DNA of 64,000 nucleotides, from positions 992,001-1,056,000 of the forward strand of contig JAHNUO010000013.1 in the NCBI GenBank assembly GCA_019787685.1. The letters run 5' to 3'. Shown piece by piece: positions 7,767-55,180 of this stretch (the stretch's first letter is position 1; each line of letters begins with the position of its first letter). Made by a program: the position numbers and the translations under genes. The notes beneath the pieces are model-generated. The model did no database searches and was not told where the DNA came from. It saw only the letters and a program-made list of their open reading frames with translations. This DNA is from Chiua virens. Its lineage: Eukaryota; Basidiomycota; Agaricomycetes; Boletales; Boletaceae.

Positions 7767-8626
7767 ATGTATCCTGCAGCACCCATTCGGCATGTCAACA
7801 GTCACCCTGAAATCGTTCGTGGAACTAACAACACTTATTCAGAATCTATCTCTGTGCTTCGCAACATCACTATGTCTCCCCCCACACTACTGAATTGCCT
7901 GCTATGCCCTCATTGCTCCAAAATGTTTACTTCACAGGGGGGGCGCATGGGGCATGTTCATACTGTGCATCCCGACTAATGACACCCTCAAGCTGACTCA
8001 GACTCTGAGTCGGACCCTGTTGGTTCCTCAAGCCACACACCTGAGCATCACAGTACCCACTTCCCCATCGCCCATCCAGATGATCTTGCAGACCTTGGAG
8101 TCAGGGATCAGTCGCCAGAAGGTCCCCATGTCGACCATGAACTTGCAGGAGGGACAGTACAGAAAGAGTATCACCCATATCTGACCGGTTTGTACCACAT
8201 TGTCAAAAAAAAATTTACTGATCATGAAATCCAGTGCAACCCTGTGATGAGTCTGGGGTGCCGTTACCTCCCAGTCATCCTCCTAGCCCTCGTGCTCAGC
8301 ATGACCCCACCGACTGGTCCCCCTTTACTGGTCAGCATGACTTCCTCGCAGATTTTCTCTTTAGGTGCAAGGAGATGTCACTGGGAAATATCAACCACCT
8401 CATGGAACTTTGGGCATTCCAAGCCCTCCAGCAGCAACCCAACAGCCTAGGGAGCAATCCATCATCTTTGGGCACACCTTTCCTATCCACTGCCCACATG
8501 TATGCAACAATTGACCAAATACACTCAGGTGGAACTCCTTGGGAGTGTATGAAAGTCTCACCAAACATGGATAGGGATGAAAATCCACCATCCTGGAAGC
8601 ATGCCAAATATGAAGTGTGGTACCGT

Positions 8627-9333
8627 TGTAGAAAAGTAATATAAGGTTGAATGAGAAGAAAGGTGGGGCGATAAGTTCGTCCCAAGGGGGGTTATGTTTG
8701 AAGGGATGATGGATTCAGGTTTGTCTAAGAGTCCTAGAAGCTGCTGGACAATCCGGAATGAAAAGCGGTCGATATAAGAGTATCCGGGTGGGGGCGAAGC
8801 GATGAGGGTATTGATTCGAGTAGATGAGACGTCGAGGAACGATAGGACGAGGTAAAAGAGAAGCTATCCAGCTCACTCACGCACGGGAGAGTAAACAGGA
8901 GATCTCCTGAACGCAGAAAGACCATATTTTTGTGTTAGAAACAGGGTTTTATAGTCCTGGGCATATCCCAGGACTGTTAAAGGTAATCCGACCCTAAGTA
9001 AGTGTACAGGATTGACATAGGGTGAGTATGGAAAGAAGGGGTGTCAAACCTTGTAGATGACAAAGAAAGGGAAGGTGTTAGGATAGTAATGACCTTAATA
9101 AGGCCAAATCGAGTAGAACAAGTCAAATCGGATGAAGCGGAATACGTACGAAAGCACCGGATTGGATCGCATTGACTCGGATTGGACTCGGATTGAACTC
9201 GGATGATCTGTAAACGCTAGGAATGAAACCGGGCTGGCACGAAGTCGATGGCGGATGAGACGGGAGATGATATGACATGATGAAGAGCGAGGAAAATGTA
9301 TCCTACAACCGTAGGGAGTATCTAACTCCTACA
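8627..9333 (-). repeat. Family B LTR (3' LTR in element sense)
   Basis: On the plus strand it begins TGTAGAAAAG and ends CTCCTACA, giving a 5-bp terminal inverted repeat TGTAG/CTACA. It is the same as the copy at 13642-14348 throughout. It contains the AGTCCTGGG-CATAT-CCCAGGACT palindrome at 8953-8975 and an AGGAGATCTCCT palindrome. Confidence 0.9.
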
Positions 9334-9487
9334 CCCGAGGGGAACTTGGATGCCGACTGTCCTCAGTCGGTCACGTGATGTACGCGCGAGCTGGGTTTGA
9401 AAACTGAACAATGCGCCACCGGACATTACTTGAACGCGTCGCATCCACACTTCTCTTCTATTCTCTTTTATCTTTTACACTTCCACT
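9334..9487 (+). promoter_or_regulatory. Probable promoter and leader of the antisense Cys6 gene
   Basis: These 154 bp separate the LTR from the ATG at 9488. They contain an inverted repeat CCGACTG-TCCT-CAGTCGG (about 9354-9371), followed directly by the palindrome TCACGTGA with a CACGTG core. A pyrimidine-rich run (about 9450-9487) precedes the ATG, typical of fungal transcription starts. The arrangement suggests the gene has its own promoter rather than depending on the LTR. Confidence 0.5.
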
Positions 9488-10774
9488 ATGTCGTACGCCG
9501 AGTCGATCCTCAAATACGTGGACACACAGAAAGCGGTCGATCCGTACGAACCACGCGTCTTCGCCAAGACGGAGCTGAAGCATGCGAACGGACGCGCCAG
9601 GGACTTCGCGAAGACGATCCTGGACGACAGGGAGGACCTGGCCGAGGAGCAAACAATGTGGCGAGAGGAATGGGATGAGATCCTGGTACGTAGTTAACCG
9701 ATCGCGTCTCGTCGTGTACTAACCGCGAACTATTCGTTTTTACAGAAACATCTCAGCGATTGCCTTCGACAGGCTCGGGACGCCGGCGTCGAGGCTCGGG
9801 TTGACAATGCGGTCACCCTCGCGATTCAAGAGTCGCAGAAGGCGATGGAACGGTGGGACGCGGCCAAGAAGCTACGAAAGGCGGCTGATGACGCGGCGAA
9901 GGCAACGGCAGCAGTGCACGAGAGTGAGGAACGAGAGGACGCAGGGGGCGAGAAGACGCGAAGGAGGCGCGAGGAGAAGGGGAAAGCGCCAGAGGGGAGA
10001 GAGAAACGGAAGGTGCGTGTCCGGATACATATCCGGTACGCGCGATGCTAACGAGGTTATACACACAGCGTCCTATCGTGATGGAGAACGAGTCGGAGGG
10101 CGAGGACGAGCCGATCATCGTCGAAAGCAGCACGGCCAAGAGCACGCCGCCGACTCATACCGATTCGCTGCGGGAGGAAGGCGACATCGACCACGAGGTG
10201 CCGTGCGAGCGGTGCGAGGGCGCAGGGTACCCCTGCTTTGGGGTTCCTAGTCGTGTATGCAGACGCTGCGGAAAGGACCGCCAGAGCTGCACATATTCAA
10301 GCGGACGTGGCGGCAAGAGGGCGAAGACGGATGGGAAGGTAGAAGCGACGAGGGTCCCAGGTGAGCAATAACACGTTGCTCATCAATCCGCGTGTATTAA
10401 TACACGGTTTAGCTTCGCAAAAACCGGTGGTATTCGTACCACCGCGCCGACTGTTCGCGGAACCGTCCAATCCGGTTCCGGATACGCGCAAGGCAAGGCC
10501 GAAGCCGCGTCCTAAGGCTAAGGCATCCATCGTGGACAACGAGGAGGAAGAGGATACGGGCCTCAAGAAGAAGCAGAAGACGTCGGGTCAAGACGGACCT
10601 ACGCGCTCTCAGGTCGACGCGGCCAAACGGGCCGTGCTCGCTATGGAGGCAGAGCTGCTCGCCTCCAAAACCGAGTACAAGACGCTTGAGATGCAGTTGG
10701 CGGATAAAGGGACGGCAATCGCGTCGAAGGAGGCTGAGTTGGAGAAGGTGAAGGCCGTACTACGGCTTCTGTAG
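9488..10774 (+). CDS. Four-exon gene for a 372-residue Zn2Cys6-spaced protein, antisense in element B
   Basis: Predicted exons are 9488-9685, 9746-10012, 10069-10360 and 10413-10774. The introns are 60, 56 and 52 nt, all GT-AG; the first two have CTAAC branch sites (GTACTAAC, GCTAAC). Splicing gives an uninterrupted 372-residue frame. The N-terminal half is charged and helical (EQTMWREEWDEIL, then an A/K/E/R-rich stretch). Residues 201-229 hold C-X2-C-X6-C-X7-C-X2-C-X6-C (CERCEGAGYPC, CRRCGKDRQSC), the spacing of the fungal binuclear zinc cluster. The usual basic first loop is replaced by a neutral/acidic one, so DNA binding is uncertain. A basic, nuclear-signal-like patch (KRAKTDGK) and a C-terminal coiled coil (about 315-370) follow. 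Clean splice sites and CpG-rich codons suggest an intact gene. Its role in the element is unknown; regulator or packaging factor are guesses. Confidence 0.75.
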
Positions 10775-11489
10775 ATAGAGTCGTCGTTCCCGCTGTGTCG
10801 TAGTATAGCAATCGATCCGTGTCCTCTGTCCAATCCGGTCGCGATCCCTAATTAAGCAACGAATGGAAAGTGATCAATAAAACGAAATGTGAGTGAAAAG
10901 AAACGAGAATAATTAATACGGGGTGCGGTTGTCCATCTGGCTTGTCTTCTTCGGTCATCTTTCGAGTCTATACCTGCACTAATCGCTTCGCCGAGCGGCC
11001 GGATTGCGTATGACAGTATTCGGTTTCAGATGAGAGAAAAGAAGTAGTAGCGAAAGTGAATATCTAAATAACAACGGTTATGATCGAAGACAAAGGAACT
11101 GGCAGTATACGGATGGTTTCATTGTTTTATTTTTCTGTCTTGTTGTATCGAAGGAAAGAGTGTATCGTATAAATTGTCTGTGTGTTTATCGGCGGTTTTC
11201 GTTGTTTTAGAGGCACCGGATCGAATCCCGGGGTGAGATAGAGAGCACCGGTCGAATCCCGGGGTAGAGACGGATACGTATCATATGGCTGACTTTATGT
11301 TTTATGCTTTGAGACGATGCTTGGACCATTGCCAAGTAGTCGCGACGTCGACTAACAACGGCGGATCATCAGGTTGAACTATAAAATCAATGAACCGGTT
11401 AGTAATGCGCAGAAACGGATCCGTATACGAGCGGATGGCATCGAAAGTGCGTGTTATGCGACTAAAAACGTGAAAAACTGAGCTTGGCA
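10775..11489. other. Non-coding interior of element B between the two convergent genes
   Basis: This 715-bp spacer between the 3' ends of the antisense gene and the gag-like gene holds no open frame of note. It contains two near-identical copies of a phrase reading accgg(a)tcgaatcccggggt (about 11215 and 11247), which resembles a tRNA T-arm, but no tRNA body surrounds them. This is where a pol gene would normally be. Confidence 0.6.
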
Positions 11490-13331
11490 TTAGGTACCAA
11501 CCAAGCTCACACCGAGGGGAACTTGAAATGATGACCTCCCGGGCTGCGTTATATGTACTCGCGGATTAAGCAGTGACAGATGGGGAATAGGCGGATTAAG
11601 TTTTGAAGGCTCCGCGGTGAAACCGGCTACCCAGGCGGATGGTGAGGACGAAGGCAAAGTGGCCGTAACGGAAGACCGGATGTGAACGAGGGGAACTTGA
11701 ATAGTAAACGACAGGAACGCGGATGAACGAATGCAAGAAGGAGGCGGATTAAAATGGGGTAAGGACTCGTGTGTAGGTAGAATGAGTAGTTGAAAGGTGC
11801 CCGCACGAACGTTCAGATGTTTCGTGGGCCTTGGGAGTATGCAAACGGCAGCGATCCGGATACGACCGGTTGGGACTGTCTCAGCCGGCGGATCATGACG
11901 ATCCTTTACAAACCGGCTGACACTCGTTCGTCCTAAAATGTTAGTTTCGCGCGGGTATGAAACAAAAATAGATAAAAATGAATGCCTGGGACGGTCAGGG
12001 TACAGCCGAGGGGGCTCGTGTATGCTGCGGATCGAAACGATATTACCGGCCGGTAATGCCTGACTCGGCACGATAGCGGTCCGCGGATGGAGCAGCTGTA
12101 GTAGGAAAAGGGAAAATGATCGGCGCGAATGGGGGATGGGTCGATAGGGAGCATTTGAGAGTGATTTCGGGGGAATGGGACGAGAGGCCGGATCGGATGC
12201 GAGACCGAGTGCGGACACGACAACGGGGGTATTTCGTAGCTGGGACATGGCGGGGCTGATTATAGGTTCTACCGGTCCGTCATTTGGATCGTCCGAATCA
12301 CGACCGGTTTCGATTGGACGTGGTGCTGTGTCGTGTATTACCAGCCGAGTTGTTACCGAATATGACAGAGTGTCCGGTTCGATGTCAAGCAGGTCGCAAG
12401 GACAGGCTGACCGTGCGTCCGTGATGCTGAGAGGTGTCGTGATGACGGTTGCACGAGGTGCAATCGGGGTTGAGAGTGGTGAGACCGGTTCAGTTAACAC
12501 GGTCGAATCGATAATAAAATCCGTCGGTCGTTCCGTAACCGACGGTCGCGATGACAGAGCAACACACGGGTTGATGTCCGTATCCGGTGCGATAACCGCA
12601 ACACTATACGAGTTAGTAGGCGGTCCTTGGATTGATGGTGAAATAAAAACGGATGAAGAGATGGGTCGGTTGTACGGAAGCGGATTGTAAGTGTCAGGTA
12701 GCGAAAGTGAAGGTGATCGAAGGCAAAGCGAAGGTGTAGGTGTAAAATAAGAATGTGATCCTGATAAAAGAAACTCGGCTGCGTCACGAACGTCATCGAG
12801 CGCATACGAGGCATCCGGGTGGATATCCGGTCGCAGGATCGCTAACCGTCGACGAATCTCGTACTGTAAATCGACTGGGAAACCACTAAGAAAAAGAAAG
12901 TCTCGGTCAAGAGTTGCTATTCGTTGTCGGGTGAGAAGGAATGATGCTACTTTTGTAAATTCCCGAATATACTTCCCCAGCTCGTCAAGGGAGCGCATTG
13001 ACTTGGATCGATAGTGATTGACGAGATTTTGGAGATCCTCGAAACGGTACCGGTTATTGAGTTCCGGGTAGAGTGTCTTGACGGCTATAACGAACGCCTG
13101 CCAATCCGGTGGATCGGCAACCGCTTCAGGTAGGGTCTCCCAAAGGTCGTGTATACTGGGATCGACGTAATGCAATGCATACCGTACTTTCTTCGATTGG
13201 GGCAGTCCGACGCATGTGCAAAGAAAGTCGACGTCGTCTAGATATGGTTGGAGATGGGAAGCTTTTCCGCTGAAGGTTGGTGCATCCAGGGTGCCTCGAT
13301 ACGGCATCCGGATTATGCTAGCCGCGATCAT
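11490..13331 (-). CDS. Gag-like protein of element B (613 residues)
   Basis: An uninterrupted 613-codon frame starts 310 bp inside the element-sense 5' LTR, the expected place for gag. Residues about 10-215 resemble the capsid-type gag domain of Agaricomycete LTR elements: DAPTFSGKASHLQPYLDDVD, KVRYALHYVD, then RSLDELGKYIREFTKVASFL, and RDFLFLSGFPVDLQYEIRRRL. In such elements this region assembles the particle. The remaining 400 residues are Pro/Ser/Thr-rich and low in complexity. No CCHC knuckle is visible, so RNA packaging may use the basic tail or another protein. CpG-rich codon use matches the rest of the element. I chose the ATG at 13331 because the conserved block begins soon after it; a Met nine codons later (IRMPYRG) is an alternative start. 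Confidence 0.8.
   Translation of the reverse strand: MIAASIIRMPYRGTLDAPTFSGKASHLQPYLDDVDFLCTCVGLPQSKKVRYALHYVDPSIHDLWETLPEAVADPPDWQAFVIAVKTLYPELNNRYRFEDLQNLVNHYRSKSMRSLDELGKYIREFTKVASFLLTRQRIATLDRDFLFLSGFPVDLQYEIRRRLAILRPDIHPDASYALDDVRDAAEFLLSGSHSYFTPTPSLCLRSPSLSLPDTYNPLPYNRPISSSVFISPSIQGPPTNSYSVAVIAPDTDINPCVALSSRPSVTERPTDFIIDSTVLTEPVSPLSTPIAPRATVITTPLSITDARSACPCDLLDIEPDTLSYSVTTRLVIHDTAPRPIETGRDSDDPNDGPVEPIISPAMSQLRNTPVVVSALGLASDPASRPIPPKSLSNAPYRPIPHSRRSFSLFLLQLLHPRTAIVPSQALPAGNIVSIRSIHEPPRLYPDRPRHSFLSIFVSYPRETNILGRTSVSRFVKDRHDPPAETVPTGRIRIAAVCILPRPTKHLNVRAGTFQLLILPTHESLPHFNPPPSCIRSSAFLSFTIQVPLVHIRSSVTATLPSSSPSAWVAGFTAEPSKLNPPIPHLSLLNPRVHITQPGRSSFQVPLGVSLVGT
11513..11525 (+). repeat. CGAGGGGAACTTG motif (three copies in element B)
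   Basis: The same 13-mer occurs at 9336-9348 (just inside the 3' LTR), 11513-11525 (at the end of the gag-like frame) and 11687-11699. It is purine-rich on the plus strand. Confidence 0.7.
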
Positions 13332-13641
13332 GATGGACGGAAATGGTGTCAGTTGATTGTCTGATGCGCTCGTGACCTTCGTAGCTAAGGGCGGATGTAT
13401 CGTGAGACACGGCGGAAGGGTTAGTAACGGTACAGGGGTGCGAGCAGGGTGAACGGGGACTAAAAGTCAGAAGGTATCATAACCGGATCCGAAAAAAAAT
13501 ATAAGGTTTGTGAAACCGGACAAGGCACAAGTCTGGGACGGGTGTAGGCGAGGTGCGCGGCAAAATGAAGGAAAAGCAGTAGGAGAGCAAAGACGTCCGA
13601 ATCCGACCCTTCTGAAACCACCCCTCGCGGTGGGCTCCAGT
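13332..13641 (-). other. Element B leader with possible primer-binding site
   Basis: Reading on the minus strand from the LTR edge, the leader begins AC then TGGAGCCCACCGCGAGGGG. A TGG two bases after the LTR is what pairing with a tRNA CCA end would need, but I could not match the rest to a particular tRNA. No segment of the LTR is complementary to it, so family B does not appear to self-prime. Confidence 0.4.
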
Positions 13642-14348
13642 TGTAGAAAAGTAATATAAGGTTGAATGAGAAGAAAGGTGGGGCGATAAGTTCGTCCCAA
13701 GGGGGGTTATGTTTGAAGGGATGATGGATTCAGGTTTGTCTAAGAGTCCTAGAAGCTGCTGGACAATCCGGAATGAAAAGCGGTCGATATAAGAGTATCC
13801 GGGTGGGGGCGAAGCGATGAGGGTATTGATTCGAGTAGATGAGACGTCGAGGAACGATAGGACGAGGTAAAAGAGAAGCTATCCAGCTCACTCACGCACG
13901 GGAGAGTAAACAGGAGATCTCCTGAACGCAGAAAGACCATATTTTTGTGTTAGAAACAGGGTTTTATAGTCCTGGGCATATCCCAGGACTGTTAAAGGTA
14001 ATCCGACCCTAAGTAAGTGTACAGGATTGACATAGGGTGAGTATGGAAAGAAGGGGTGTCAAACCTTGTAGATGACAAAGAAAGGGAAGGTGTTAGGATA
14101 GTAATGACCTTAATAAGGCCAAATCGAGTAGAACAAGTCAAATCGGATGAAGCGGAATACGTACGAAAGCACCGGATTGGATCGCATTGACTCGGATTGG
14201 ACTCGGATTGAACTCGGATGATCTGTAAACGCTAGGAATGAAACCGGGCTGGCACGAAGTCGATGGCGGATGAGACGGGAGATGATATGACATGATGAAG
14301 AGCGAGGAAAATGTATCCTACAACCGTAGGGAGTATCTAACTCCTACA
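13642..14348 (-). repeat. Family B LTR (5' LTR in element sense)
   Basis: Second copy of the 707-bp LTR. On the minus strand it carries a TATA box (TATAAAA, 13968-13962) adjoining the palindrome AGTCCTGGG-CATAT-CCCAGGACT (13968-13990). It should drive the gag-like gene. Confidence 0.9.
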
Positions 14349-15964
14349 CCGTGATGTGGATTGTGTCCTCACTAAGATGCTTGACAATGCTGACTTCAAA
14401 GATAAATTTGACTATTGCCCCTTTACTTACATGGATTCAATGATGCAGCTTTCCGCTCATTCAAAAAGAAATTATATCATGCCTCCGTATCGGTGCTATT
14501 GCAACCGGCGAAGCCAGCCATGATCACTGCAGTCATGTGCCATTGTCCTGATGGCCATTGGTGCTGCGTAATATTTGACTTGGTGGTTTCATTGCTGACT
14601 ATCCTGAGCAAGTTATGCTGAGTGGGATTGTGCAAGGATGGTGTTCCAAGTGTGTATAACATACTATATTGCTGGCACCGTTATTCATATGCACATATCA
14701 GATGTATGGCACTGATGAATGATCTTGATGGTCCAGGGGGGCGACGTACACACGCTCTGCACTGCCTACTTCATGATGTACTTCCTTTGGATGTACTTTG
14801 GCACAAGTATGGGATAGACGTCACTATTATTGTTAGTATCTTTTTCTTTTATTTTCTCATGTGTGTCTGGTTCATTGACAAGGTTTTTGTTAGCCGTTCA
14901 CCCATGATTTCCCTTGTGCAGATATATTTGCGATGATATCGCCCGATCTGCTTCATTAGCTGATCAAAGGGACGTTCAAGGATCACCTTGTGATGTGGAC
15001 TTGTGAATGGATTGAGGCCGAGTATGAGCCTGCCCATGCCAAGGAGATTCTAGATGACATTGATAGGCAGTAAGTGACCGTGCCGATTTATTGTGTTAAA
15101 GAATGACAGTTGTGTAGTCTGGCTGTAGTACCTCATTTCACCAGTCTATATCGCTTTCCCCATGGCTGCTGCTTCAAACAATAGACAGGTGACGACTCTA
15201 AAGCACTAATGAAGGTGCATATTTATACTATGTCTTATAGGGAACTTAACAAAAATATAGATCTACTTACCCACTATTGCTGAATACATTCCCCCACAGC
15301 TGGTGCAGTGTTTAGCTGCTTTTTTGGATTTCTGCTACATTGTTTGTCAATCAGAACTTGGAGTCAAGGACCTGGAAGATGCTGAGAATGCTTTGGCAGC
15401 ATTTCACTCATACCACAAGGTGTTCTGTTCCAAAGTTCAGCCCACTGGATTCTCCCTCCCTCGTCAACATGCACTGTGTCACTACATCCGTATGATTCAG
15501 GAATTTGGGGCACCAAATGGCCTGTGCAGTTCCATTACCGAATCACACCATATAACAGCAGTCAAACGCCCATGGTGTCGCTCAAACCGTTACAACGCCC
15601 TTGGCCAAATGCTTTTGACTATTCAACGTCTCGACAAGCTCACTACTGCCCGGATTTTTTTCATCCAACAGGGTATGCTCCCACCTGATGTTGAAGCTCC
15701 CTCATCGATCCAAGCAGCCTCTACCAGCCAGGATATTGACCAACAAGAGCCAGATGACAAGGCTGTCAATACCGAGCATATTGAAAGCCATATGCATTTA
15801 CCCATGCGACCCCATAAGTATGTTTACATTATTGTTTGACATGATATACTTATCCTGCCTTCAGAACGTGGATATGTGATACAACTAACATGTCTGGCTC
15901 TCCAAATCCATGAACCACAGCTCCCCTGGCTAGTCCACAACTTTCTTGATGCAGAGCATGGCTC

Positions 15965-16670
15965 TGTTACAATTTCTTTCTTTCCTTTGTTTCACTTGTA
16001 CTACTTCTTGTTACTTGATACCTAGGTATCTTCGTACGTTCATCCATACTTCATTTCTCTTATGTAACCAGCATCGGCATCACCTGATAGCTTATTCTCT
16101 TCCTTTCACGTCATCATCCAACGACATCGCTCTTACTTATTTCTTTCTTGTCATCATCCAATGGCTTTGCATTTGTCATTTCATCTTAGTCATCGTCCAC
16201 TGCCTTCACATCGTACAATTCCTCCTTTCAGCCCTTTTCCCTTCTGCTCTTCTTGGCCACCCCTTTTGGACACTTGGTCCATGCACAATTCCTATAGTAT
16301 AAATACCTCGCAGTGTTACTCCTGTACCCTAGTCTTGATCTCCGCAATCTAGCTGAGTATCACTGCTCCACTTGGACCCCTTTCTTGTGACCACTTGACC
16401 AGGGACTTCTCAAGTCATCCCTTGACCACTCAGACTCTACGCAGTCAACCCATAACCCTTGACCATCCCTCGGGTATAGATTCCCAACCGGACAACTCTC
16501 TGCAACACCTGAGTTTTCACTCGTCTCTCTGGTAGCAATCCACTAACCAGAAACTCTCGTCTACTCTTCAGCACACCACATATCAAGTGGTGGTTGTTTG
16601 AGTTATCACAGCCACTTGATACTTAGTGCTTTTGCAGCTACGCTAGGTTCTACCCGGAACTATCGTAACA
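15965..16670 (+). repeat. Family A 5' LTR with TATA box
   Basis: Begins TGTTACAAT and ends ATCGTAACA. The TATA box TATAAATA is at 16298-16305, and AGTCTTGATCT, the predicted mRNA start, is at 16331-16341. The boundaries are supported by exact 5-bp duplications around five solo copies. Confidence 0.9.
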
Positions 16671-26903: not shown

Positions 26904-27604
26904 TGTAGGAGTTAGATACTCACAGTTGTAGGATACCTTTTCCTCACTCTCCATCATGTCCTATCATCTCCCATCTCATCCACCATTGACTTCATGCCAG
27001 TCTGGTTTCATTCCCAGCATTTACAGATCATCTGAATCCAATCCAAGTCCAATCCAAGTCAACACGATCCAATATGGTTTCATCGTATATATTCCGCTTC
27101 ATCTGATTTGACTTGTTCTATTCGATTTGGCCTTATTAAGGTCATTACTATCCTAACACCTTCTTTTCCTTTGTTATCTACAAGGTTTGACACTCCTTCT
27201 TAAATACTCACCCTACATTGATCCTGTACACTTACCTAGGGTCAGATTGCCTGTAACAGTCCTGGGTTATGCCCAGGACTATAAAACCATGTTTTCTAAT
27301 ATAAAATAGGATCTTTCTGCGTTCAGGAGATCTCCTGTTTACTCTCCCATGTGTGAGTGAGCTGGATAGCTTTCCTTTTACCTCGTCCTATTGTTCCTTT
27401 GCATCTCATCTACTCGAATCAATCCTCTCATCACCTCAACTCCACCCGGATACTTTTTCATCAACCACTTTTCATCCTGGATCGTTCAGCAGCCTCTAGG
27501 ACTCCTAGACAAACCCAAATCTTTCATTCCTTCCAGTATAACCCCCCTTGGGACAAACTTATCACCCCACCTTTCTTCATTTCACCTATTATTTGATATC
27601 TACA
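26904..27604 (+). repeat. Family B solo LTR, TSD ACAT
   Basis: The LTR of family B in opposite orientation to the 8.6-kb element, from TGTAGGAGTT to ATCTACA, with ACAT at 26900-26903 and 27605-27608. It shows many CG to TG/CA changes relative to the young copy. The palindrome and TATAAAA are kept near 27261-27290. Confidence 0.9.
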
Positions 27605-43380: not shown

Positions 43381-44051
43381 TGTGGAAAACTAAAAATAGG
43401 TAAAATGAAGAAAGGTGGGGCAATAAGTTCATCCCAAGAGGGGTTGTTTGTCTAGGAGTCCTAGAGGCTGCTGAACGATCCAGAATGAAAAGCGGTTGAT
43501 GAAAAAGTATCTGGGTGGTCCACAGTCAAGGCAATGAGAGGATTAATTTGAGTAGATGAGACACAGAGAAATGATAGGACAATGTAAAAGGAAAGCTATC
43601 CAGCTCACTCCACACATGGGAGAGTAAACAGGAGATCTCCTGAACGCAGAGATAATATTTTATGTTAGAAACATGGTTTTATAGTCCTGGGCACAACCCA
43701 GGACTGTTAAAGGCAATCCAACCCTAGGTAAGTGTACAGGATCAATGTAGGGTGAGTATTTAAGAAGGAGTGTCAAACCTTGTAGATAACAAAGGAAAAG
43801 AAGGTGTTAGGATAGTAACGACCTTAATAAGGCCAAATCAAATAGAACAAGTCAAATCAGATGAAGTGGAATACGTACAATGAAACCAGATTGGATCGCA
43901 TTGACTCAGATTAGACTCAGATGATCTGTAAATGCTAGGAATGAAACCAGGCTGGCACAAAGTCGATGTTGGATGAGATAGGAGGTAATAGGACATGATG
44001 AAGAGTGAGGAAAAGGTATCCTACAACTGTAAGGAGTATCTAACTCCTACA
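43381..44051 (-). repeat. Family B solo LTR, TSD GCGT/GTGT
   Basis: Runs from TGTGGAAAAC to CTCCTACA, aligned with the young 707-bp LTR, with most CpGs changed. The flanks are GCGT (43377-43380) and GTGT (44052-44055), one CpG-type transition apart. Confidence 0.85.
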
Positions 44052-53100: not shown

Positions 53101-53130
53101 TCCAAAAATCATTGCTCATGTGGGAAACAT
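50111..53130. other. No gene recognised
   Basis: Only scattered short frames. Frames at 51104-51591 are Cys/Val-rich with a conserved-looking stretch MLDPVVPDAYKVDYSDAL, but I could not place them in a family. The rest up to the family B LTR is AT-rich and featureless. Confidence 0.4.
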
Positions 53131-54255
53131 TGTAGAAAACTAATAATAAGTGAAATGAAGAAAGGTGGGGCAATATGTTCATCCCAAGGGGGGTTATACT
53201 TGAAGGAATGAAGGATTTGGGTTTGTCTAGGAGTCCTAGAGGCTGCTGAATGATCTGGAATGAAAAGCAGTCAATGAAAAAGTATCCAGGTGGAGTCGAG
53301 GCGATGAGAGGATTGATTCAAGTAGATGAGATGCAATGGAATGATGGGATGAGGTAAAAGGAAAGCTATCCAGCTCACTCACACATGGGAGAGTAGGCAG
53401 GAGATTTCCTGAATGCAGAAAAATAATATGTTATGTCAGAAAACATGGTTTTATAGTCCTGGGCATGTTATGATAGTTCCAGGTTGGACCTAGTGTAGCT
53501 GCAAAAGCGCCAAGTACCAAGTGGCTGCGATAACTCAAACAATCACCACTTGATATGAAGTTGCTAAAAGGGGGAGGCCAGAAGAGTGGAAGAGCAAAAG
53601 GGCCAAAAGGGAAGTGCACGATATCCAAAAGGGATGGCCAAGAAGAGCGGAAGGATCAAAGGGCCAAAAGGAGGAATCATACAATGCTACGGCAGTGGAT
53701 GATGACAAAGAAGAAATGAGTAAAAGCAATGCCATCGGATGATGACAAGAATAAAATGAGTAAGCACACAGGTAAAGCTGGTGCGGAGTTTCAAAGGTGA
53801 AAGAAGAACAAGTACGGATGAATGTGCGAGGATACCTAAGTATCAAGTGGAGAGAAGTAGTACAAGTGAAACGAAAGAAAGAAATCGTAACAGGGCATAA
53901 CCCAGGACTGTTAAAGGCAATCCAACCCTAGGTAAGTATACAGGATTGATGTAGGGTGAGTATTTAAGAAGGAGTGTCAAACCTTGTAGATAACAAAGGA
54001 AAAGAAGGTGTTATGATTGTAACAACCTTAATAAGGCCAAATTGAATAGAACAAGTCAAATCAGATGAAGCAGAATACATATGATGAAACCAGATTGGAT
54101 TGTGTTGACTTAGATTGGACTTGGATTACCTGTAAACACTGGGAATGAAACTGGACTGGCATGAAGTCAATAGCAGATGAGATGGGAGGTGATAGGACTC
54201 GATGGAGAGTAAGGAAAAGGTATCCTGCAACTGTAAGGAGTATCTAACTCCTACA
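53131..54255 (-). repeat. Family B solo LTR with nested family A LTR, TSD ACAT/ATGT
   Basis: Runs from TGTAGAAAAC to CTCCTACA, interrupted by a family A LTR. The flanks are ACAT (53127-53130) and ATGT (54256-54259); each is one CpG-type transition from ACGT. The minus-strand TATA box (TATAAAA) is at 53455-53449. Confidence 0.85.
53466..53892 (-). repeat. Family A solo LTR nested in LTR B, TSD GGGCA
   Basis: A 427-bp, internally deleted reverse LTR, TGTTATGATAG to TCGTAACA, with GGGCA at 53461-53465 and 53893-53897. It splits the AGTCCTGGG...CCCAGGACT palindrome of the host LTR, 10 bp upstream of its TATA box. Confidence 0.9.
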
Positions 54256-54259
54256 ATGT

Positions 54260-55180
54260 GACTCAGACCCAGATTTCTGATGACCAGGATGACCATCCCA
54301 CTCGGACATTATTATATTGTCAAACATTAATGACTCCCCAATATGTGGTGGTTGCTCTGTGTACACCTAGGCCCTCAGTGTTCTTTATCAAGGTTTGTCC
54401 CTCAATGCCACAATCTGTCCTTAAACATTCCATTCACTGCTGAATTCAGTTGTACCCCAATTTATAACCCACACAAGTGAGGGCTTTGAGGGGGTTTAGC
54501 ATCTCATTGGAAGGCAAGGTTCTCGGGTGCAGGTTCCACTGGGGATGGTTTTGTGGCTAGCTAAGTGAGGACACATGAAAAGCCAAGGCAAGGAGAATAC
54601 CATCACTAAGTGGTAGGCTACCAGCTGTTTTTCTTATCCTCATTTTAGACCTGAAGCTTGCTTTGCCACCACGCAAGCCTGGATTGTGATCCTGTTACCA
54701 TTGCTTCAAGGTGGACTTCAATCATGTTTAGAACTATCTCTTCCTTGGTCCCCTGTCTAACAACATTGGGCATGGCTGATTCTGGTAGCAAGCCTCAACT
54801 GACTGTTATTGGACAGTTCATCCTCGCCTTAGGTTATGGCAGTCCTATTCTGGTATGCAATCTTGAGATGTGGATGGGTGTCTGACCATTAAAAATGCAG
54901 ATGGTCACAATCACATGTTGACCCCACCGATGCTTCTCCCAGAACCCACTCCTCCCAGAACCTCAAAGATTGACTCACTTCTCATCCCACCATGCTTTTC
55001 TGTCCTGTCACTCCCAGTGCTTTAAAGACATTGTTACAGTCAGCACTCCCCTATTCCTCTGATTACCATCAATGGCAGAGAATATCTGGTTGAATAGCAG
55101 GATGGTACCCTGTGTTGCCTTGTTAATCAGTGCAAGAGTTGCTACTCAACCAGGGAGAACTTCACCAAGCACATCAAGGG
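54260..55180. other. No settled gene; zinc-finger-like piece
   Basis: At about 55060-55180 one plus frame reads INGREYLVEYQDGTLCCLVN then QCKSCYSTRENFTKHIKGIH, a C-X2-C...H-X4-H arrangement like a single C2H2 finger. It runs into the tandem duplication at 55181. Nothing else was recognised. Confidence 0.35.

What the first reader, a model, noticed from the sequence alone, without database searches (positions are those of the whole stretch)
8627..14348. Recent pol-less LTR element pairing a gag-like gene with an antisense spliced gene
Seen: identical 707-bp LTRs, CCGT duplications, a 613-codon gag-like frame in element sense, and a four-exon gene on the other strand between gag and the 3' LTR. 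There are no protease, RT, RNase H or integrase motifs in the 4.3-kb interior. Inference: this is a non-autonomous gag-carrying element, moved in trans by another element, that keeps a second gene under its own promoter. Antisense genes between pol and the 3' LTR are known from some plant LTR elements, but I know of none with this protein type in fungi.
Basis: partly seen in the sequence, partly recalled or inferred. Interest (0 to 1): 0.88.

Follow-up and report, generated by a model that had tools for sequence, protein, structure and literature searches.

The report
Gag-only retrotransposon with antisense zinc gene
A family of jumping genes in this fungus has lost its own copying enzymes but keeps a shell-protein gene and a back-to-front, intron-containing gene inherited from complete relatives in the same genome, and both kinds appear to land almost only on CG sites.

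Summary
8627-14348 is an LTR element read on the minus strand: identical 707-bp LTRs, CCGT duplications, a tRNA primer site, a 613-codon gag frame, no pol, and a four-exon gene on the other strand (9488-10774). Fourteen copies, window included, span the whole interior; all 14 keep the antisense start codon and splice sites. The antisense gene is not a trapped host gene: a complete gypsy element read in the same genome (gag-protease, RT-RNase H-integrase) carries a homologous four-exon gene with the same intron phases and six-cysteine pattern, antisense, between pol and the 3' LTR; 18 of 24 further hits of that type fit this layout. So the window element looks like a pol-less derivative that kept gag and an older antisense gene. 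Non-CpG changes show purifying selection on the antisense gene; gag is unclear. Shared primer site, LTR tips and target choice suggest the complete family as helper. Unexpected: LTR flanks of both families are almost all NCGN or its CpG-decay products, with 4-bp duplications. Antisense genes are known in plant LTR elements and in Boty of Botrytis; I found no report of this protein type, of a pol-less fungal form, or of the CpG rule.

The parts
8623..8626 (.). target site duplication CCGT
8627..9333 (-). 3' LTR (element sense is the minus strand), 707 bp
   Evidence: identical to the other LTR
9334..9354 (-). sequence next to the 3' LTR where the plus-strand primer (PPT) is expected; as part of a 40-nt junction pattern it recurs at 38 places with up to 3 mismatches
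   Evidence: counterpart in the complete element
9488..9685 (+). antisense gene, exon 1 (ATG)
9746..10012 (+). antisense gene, exon 2
10069..10360 (+). antisense gene, exon 3, with CX2CX6CX7CX2CX6C
10413..10774 (+). antisense gene, exon 4 to stop
11214..11282 (-). non-coding stretch matching the stretch after pol in the complete element (81% over 69 bp)
11283..11545 (-). stretch at and after the gag end; 40 of 42 candidates scored, 90-100% identity; not every match was placed
11490..13331 (-). gag-like ORF, 613 codons; residues 2-261 align with the complete element's gag
13622..13639 (-). primer binding site, TGG plus complement of the 3' end of host tRNA genes that I read as tRNA-Lys
13642..14348 (-). 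5' LTR; an ACTATAAAA box at 13962-13970 aligns with one in the complete element's LTR
14349..14352 (.). target site duplication CCGT

Best explanation
A recently inserted, non-autonomous Ty3/gypsy-type LTR retrotransposon. Shown: it belongs to an amplified family with LTRs, PBS, gag and an antisense four-exon gene but no detectable protease or pol; a complete gypsy element of the same genome has this layout plus protease and pol, antisense gene included. Inferred: the family arose by loss of protease and pol from such an element. The 5' LTR makes the sense RNA, which yields its own Gag and is packaged, reverse transcribed from a tRNA primer and integrated by enzymes of the complete family; a shared integrase would explain why both families insert at NCGN with 4-bp duplications. 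The antisense gene is transcribed from a promoter in or beside the 3' LTR and makes a zinc-cluster, probably nuclear and DNA-binding protein that regulates element transcription or integration. The helper inference is likely; the role of the antisense protein is only a best guess.
For: Structure. Copies: 14 interior-spanning copies, 224 exact LTR starts, 38 interior/3'LTR junctions. Complete relative L029/L030: gag-protease frame with DUF4100 and aspartyl protease over their cut-offs; pol frame with RNase H and integrase zinc domain over cut-off, RVT_1 (E 1.6e-6) and rve (E 1.1e-5) just under theirs; gag 42% identical over 263 positions, E 5e-51; antisense protein 27% over 390 positions, E 4e-31, intron phases 0,0,1 in both, six Cys conserved. 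18 of 24 antisense exon hits of the complete type have a gag-protease match 3.8-6.8 kb away on the opposite strand, 0 on the same strand. PBS: 22 nt identical between the families, complementary to host tRNA genes. Selection on the antisense gene: shared non-CpG changes 17 synonymous, 8 nonsynonymous, odds ratio 0.20, 0 of 1000 simulations as low. Target choice shared.
Against: The LTRs of the two families resemble each other mainly at the tips and in a few boxes, so the helper could be another subfamily. 14 of 32 gag-protease matches have no listed antisense exon within 8 kb and 6 of 24 exon hits have no gag-protease match; many may be truncated, not checked. Gag selection is unclear: odds ratio 0.86 for all changes, 0.71 for non-CpG changes, near 1 for changes shared by three or more. 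The antisense result rests on 25 changes and on leaving out CpG sites. No transcript, particle or movement was observed. The zinc stretch scores 14.9 bits against Zn_clus, under the 21-bit cut-off; the fold of exon 3 is unusable (pLDDT 55).
Confidence: 0.78

Rival explanations
1. The antisense gene is a host gene that ended up between two LTRs by recombination, or was captured recently by this family.
For: It has introns, uncommon for an element gene (though sense element RNA would keep antisense introns). One search hits were not all placed, so a lone host copy is not excluded.
Against: Same position in all 14 interior-spanning copies; a diverged homologue with the same intron phases in the complete element and the fitting layout for 18 of 24 further hits.
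Confidence: 0.02
2. The antisense unit works as RNA: convergent transcription makes dsRNA that limits the element, and the protein is irrelevant.
For: Gag and the antisense gene are convergent; this idea is discussed for plant elements in PMC7264820 (passages).
Against: Start codon and splice sites are kept in 14 of 14 copies, non-CpG changes are mostly synonymous, and a homologous protein is kept in the complete family.
Confidence: 0.1
3. The element is moved by a different helper than the complete family found here.
For: Gag is only 42-49% identical to the complete family's; LTR middles differ. I did not check each of the 75 gag matches for pol, so a closer helper could have been missed.
Against: Same PBS, LTR tips, antisense gene and target rule.
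Confidence: 0.12
4. The copies are debris of one old element spread by segmental duplication rather than retrotransposition.
For: A truncated copy with an inverted solo LTR recurs at C14 (twice) and C79 with the same match ends (only one of the three was read). Three copies have unlike flanks (L015, L018, L020).
Against: 7 copies with both LTRs have their own identical 4-bp duplication and 3 more differ by one CpG-type change; LTR pairs range from no difference to about 95% identity.
Confidence: 0.02

Closest known systems
Boty / BcGypsy1 of Botrytis cinerea with antisense gene brtn (Zhao et al. 2011, not held; seen through passages of PMC8365987 and PMC4227169 and a section of PMC7264820)
   Same: Fungal gypsy element with an extra antisense gene between pol and the 3' LTR
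   Different: Ascomycete; gag-pol with chromodomain reported, and a 5-bp duplication CTCAT at a solo LTR (PMC4227169). Those passages mention no pol-less brtn family; BRTN was not compared here
Retand, Grande, RIRE2 plant elements (PMC11963269 abstract and passages, PMC7264820 passages and one section)
   Same: Antisense gene after pol, thought nuclear or DNA-binding; some recently active Retand forms are non-autonomous
   Different: Plants; Retand antisense protein has the TRP28 domain, which Pfam does not find here
TR-GAG elements of plants (name seen in the listing; definition recalled)
   Same: LTRs, PBS and gag, no pol, thought to move in trans
   Different: Plants; no antisense gene that I know of (recalled)
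Zn2Cys6 fungal transcription factors (Pfam PF00172)
   Same: Six cysteines spaced CX2CX6CX7CX2CX6C followed by a basic stretch (sequence reading)
   Different: Under the Pfam cut-off; few basic residues between cysteines 2 and 3

Membership tests
LTR retrotransposon | Two direct LTRs, TG..CA ends, target duplication | tested here: met
LTR retrotransposon | tRNA primer binding site next to the 5' LTR | tested here: met
   five exact host tRNA-gene places with the matching 3' end
LTR retrotransposon | Polypurine tract before the 3' LTR | tested here: inconclusive
   conserved but not purine-rich on the sense strand
Ty3/gypsy (autonomous) | pol with RT, RNase H, then integrase | tested here: not met
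   no Pfam match in the window proteins; order met in relative L029
Ty3/gypsy (as a derivative) | gag homologous to a gypsy gag-pol element | tested here: met
   E 5e-51 to the L029 gag-protease frame
TR-GAG-like non-autonomous element | gag kept, pol lost, family amplified | tested here: met
   (definition recalled)
Gypsy with antisense gene (Boty, Retand type) | gene antisense to gag, between pol (or gag) and the 3' LTR, in most copies | tested here: met
   14 of 14 pol-less copies; 18 of 24 complete-type hits
Retand lineage | TRP28 domain in the antisense protein | tested here: not met
   no Pfam match at E<=1
Boty | homology of the antisense protein to BRTN | not tested
   no BRTN sequence in hand
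Zn2Cys6 transcription factor | six-cysteine spacing | tested here: met
   in 20 of 27 loci L009-L035; L030, L031, L033 and L034 do not hold the exon, and L015, L025 and L027 (changed or cut) lack the pattern
Zn2Cys6 transcription factor | Pfam PF00172 over its cut-off | tested here: not met
   14.9 bits (window) and 8.5 bits (L029) against 21
Zn2Cys6 transcription factor | zinc and DNA binding | not testable with these tools
   needs protein

The most novel reading that the evidence does not exclude
A gypsy lineage of this (by its pol relatives, basidiomycete) genome integrates essentially only across CpG dinucleotides, and its antisense-encoded zinc-cluster protein, kept even by the pol-less parasite, is a cofactor of that integration (reading CpG, perhaps its methylation state) rather than a transcription regulator.
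Probability: 0.1. Interest if true: 0.88.

Novelty: new variant of a known kind. Interest (0 to 1): 0.6.

Why it matters
It suggests that a transposon parasite can shed its enzymes yet keep an antisense accessory gene under selection, so the accessory protein probably matters to its own element or in trade with the helper. With a pol-bearing and a pol-less family side by side, the unknown role of such antisense genes can be tested by comparison. A near-absolute CpG target rule would be unusual for an LTR element and ties insertion to the dinucleotide that methylation-based genome defence marks and erodes.

Tried and rejected
Host-gene trap: rejected. A gag-only subfamily without antisense gene at C14/C79: rejected after reading one copy (L033): the second LTR is inverted, as if a solo LTR sat in a truncated copy. 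A plain dN/dS ratio looked strong (pooled, antisense 0.30 against 1.05 and 0.85 in shifted frames; gag 0.53 against 0.74 and 0.80), but most changes are at CpG sites, so I used a null that keeps base and CpG class. The signal then shrank for all changes (antisense odds ratio 0.75, 12 of 1000; gag 0.86, 97 of 1000) and stayed strong for non-CpG changes of the antisense gene (0.35, 0 of 1000; gag 0.71, 44 of 1000). In one search (22 rows): antisense shared by two or more, non-CpG 0.20 (0 of 1000, 25 changes), all 0.74 (14 of 1000); shared by three or more 0.28 (10 of 1000, 14 changes) and 0.78 (75 of 1000); singletons 0.63 (43) and 0.84 (197). Gag shared by two or more 0.71 (52) and 0.88 (110); by three or more 0.94 (465) and 0.98 (453); singletons 0.76 (54) and 0.69 (5 of 1000), the last unexplained. 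Homologues of the antisense protein in the large protein set: none at E<=0.01 for one sequence, none at E<=1 for a two-row alignment; these searches need shared 5-mers and score only part of the candidates. Solved structures: nothing meaningful for the zinc stretch or gag. Folds of gag (pLDDT 37) and exon 3 (pLDDT 55), made without an alignment, were too poor to search. One scan of viral contigs found no relative of the pol. Papers: ten searches.

Full report
What is there. The window is G000:C13:992001-1056000 of a 48.3-Mb, 136-contig genome. The finding is real at the stated coordinates. Two identical 707-bp LTRs (8627-9333, 13642-14348) are flanked by CCGT. The element is read on the minus strand. 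After the 5' LTR comes a primer binding site (13622-13639) whose complement matches the 3' end of host tRNA genes: five exact and one two-mismatch hit to a tRNA-shaped pattern. ARAGORN, in bacterial mode, calls the genes of four fetched loci Arg, Lys, Lys (the same gene in overlapping loci) and His; they carry introns and I read them as tRNA-Lys from the sequence, so the amino acid is my reading. Then gag (13331-11490, 613 codons), on the other strand a gene of four exons (9488-10774), and the 3' LTR. Neither protein has a Pfam match at E<=1. CpG observed/expected is 1.33 in the element against 0.26 and 0.21 on its two sides.

A family, not a single oddity. The interior gave 57 matches from 38 scored of 68 candidates; 14 rows span the whole interior, window included. 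Counts are lower bounds. The exact 19-nt LTR start occurs 224 times; 38 places have the interior/3' LTR junction with up to 3 mismatches. I aligned the 14 interiors. LTR pairs run from no difference (2 copies) to about 95% identity (L018) (the rows L012, L016, L017, L020 and L023, truncated or wrongly bounded, not counted). The window copy alone lacks 19 bp at 11544, which changes the end of gag.

The antisense gene is real. Start codon and GT/AG at all three introns hold in 14 of 14 copies; 13 of 14 have no indel in the exons; 8 of 14 have no internal stop. For gag up to the 19-bp site, 4 of 14 have no stop. The pattern CX2CX6CX7CX2CX6C is in 20 of 27 loci, two of them complete-type (L029, L035). 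With a null that keeps base and CpG class, changes shared by two or more of 22 sequences and not at CpG sites were 17 synonymous to 8 nonsynonymous in the antisense gene (odds ratio 0.20, 0 of 1000 simulations) and 41 to 68 in gag (0.71, 52 of 1000); with all changes 0.74 (14 of 1000) and 0.88 (110 of 1000). The other cuts of these data, some weaker, are in Tried and rejected. I take the antisense gene to be under purifying selection and leave gag open.

The complete relative. The gag search also hit 16 frames at 44-49% identity, some open for up to 903 codons. One locus (L029 with L030) was read in full. LTRs of 885 and 884 bp differ at 22 sites; CCGG on both sides; the same 22-nt PBS; a gag-protease frame with a CCHC-like stretch (zf-CCHC 13.6 bits, under cut-off), DUF4100 and aspartyl protease; a pol frame with RNase H and integrase zinc domain over cut-off and RVT_1 and rve just under theirs. 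Between pol and the 3' LTR lies, antisense, a four-exon gene with intron phases 0, 0, 1 as in the window; the proteins align over 390 positions at 27% identity, E 4e-31. A 69-bp stretch just after pol matches one after gag in the window. The zinc exon has 70 matches in the genome. Of the 24 with 41% identity or less, 18 have a gag-protease match 3.8-6.8 kb away on the opposite strand and none on the same strand; 6 have none within 8 kb, and 14 of 32 gag-protease matches have no such exon hit (one hit of 48% identity at C12:819581 was left out as neither type). Hence the antisense gene most likely predates the loss of pol. The pol has 1193 relatives at E<=1e-20 among the 7988 candidates scored; of the best 120 listed, the few that bear an organism name are basidiomycetes (Leucocoprinus, Rhodofomes, Candolleomyces, Pleurotus). 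Whether those elements carry the antisense gene could not be seen.

Target choice. Of 13 LTR elements or solo LTRs held with identical 4-bp duplications, 12 are NCGN; the other, an old LTR at 26904-27604, is ACAT (paired by me from the printed flanks). Three copies differ by one CpG-type change (GCAT/GCGT, CCGG/CCAG, TCGC/TCAC) and three have unlike flanks (ACGC/GCGA, GTGT/TCGC, CCGT/CCGG). Genome-wide, of 224 exact LTR starts, 193 are preceded by YRN and 107 by CGN. By my count, 29 of the other 31 are junctions to the element's own interior and 2 are not accounted for; at least one of the 193 (C35:244183) is also a junction. In the 100 listed of the 193 the dinucleotide is CG 54, CA 24, TG 22, TA 0. 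CA and TG are what CpG deamination gives. For the complete family, 100 of 111 places were listed: CG 46, CA 21, TG 14, AG 9, GG 10. AG and GG fit the interior junction, and 13 of these 19 lie next to an antisense exon; the other 6 were not checked. That pattern admitted G as first base only as the mismatch, so the census is incomplete for it. CG is 4.8% of dinucleotides in the held DNA and 1.7% in the window. A control LTR family in the window (TGTTA...TAACA) shows 5-bp duplications, ATGAT, GAAAC, CTCCA, ATAGC and GGGCA, none with CG (flanks printed, read by me; 5 of 5). So the rule is not general in this genome, and both families follow it, which suggests one integrase type for both.

Mechanism. 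Shown: anatomy, family, relation, target rule. Inferred: pol-less RNA is copied and inserted by enzymes of the complete family; its own gag may help packaging or interfere. The antisense protein is probably nuclear and DNA-binding: six cysteines in Zn2Cys6 spacing, a basic stretch after them and a C-terminal end that reads like a coiled coil (sequence reading; no fold supports it). Plant and retroviral parallels are discussed in PMC11963269 (passages). The CpG rule itself is more likely a property of the integrase than of a tether (inference); retroviral integrases that make 4-bp duplications are recalled to prefer a flexible pyrimidine-purine step there.

Known or new. Antisense genes in LTR elements are known in plants and, in fungi, in Boty (PMC7264820 passages and section 5; PMC8365987 passages). 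Pol-less gag elements are known in plants (listing). I found no report of a CpG-restricted LTR element, of a zinc-cluster antisense protein in basidiomycete gypsy elements, or of a pol-less fungal family with such a gene. I looked into only a few of the listed papers and the library lacks most subscription journals, so this is weak evidence of novelty. A plant survey notes GC-rich centres in 4-bp duplications (PMC6911290, passages), by its text a milder preference.

Noticed in passing
8623-8626 and LTR flanks genome-wide: Near-absolute NCGN target with 4-bp duplications in both the pol-less and the complete family: 193 of 224 LTR starts YRN (107 CGN), 29 of the other 31 interior junctions; complete family 81 of 81 listed non-junction-type flanks CG, CA or TG.
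   Followed up: yes
26193, 29149, 32964, 36600, 53466: A second LTR family (TGTTA...TAACA) in the same window shows 5-bp duplications without CG, 5 of 5.
   Followed up: partly
L033 (G000:C14:41000-47500): Truncated copy ending in an inverted solo LTR; matches with the same ends at C14:115124 and C79:24697 suggest segmental duplication.
   Followed up: partly
L028 4476-5182: A 99% identical solo LTR of the family inserted inside an older family member, with GCGC on both sides.
   Followed up: no
9339, 11516, 11690: The junction motif CAAGTTCCCC (element sense) occurs three times in the element and nowhere else in the window; the copy at 11516 is followed by TGTGAG and an inverted repeat, like an LTR start, hinting at an old chimeric joint (search with the neighbouring stretch, showed no other element).
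   Followed up: partly
window 1-64000: CpG observed/expected is 0.07-0.47 in the 4-kb bins outside 8001-16000, against 1.16 and 0.97 in the two bins that hold the element, so the surroundings look like decayed repeat DNA.
   Followed up: no
26904-27604, 43381-44051, 53130-54264: Older relics of the same LTR family in the window, the last split by a solo LTR of another family.
   Followed up: no
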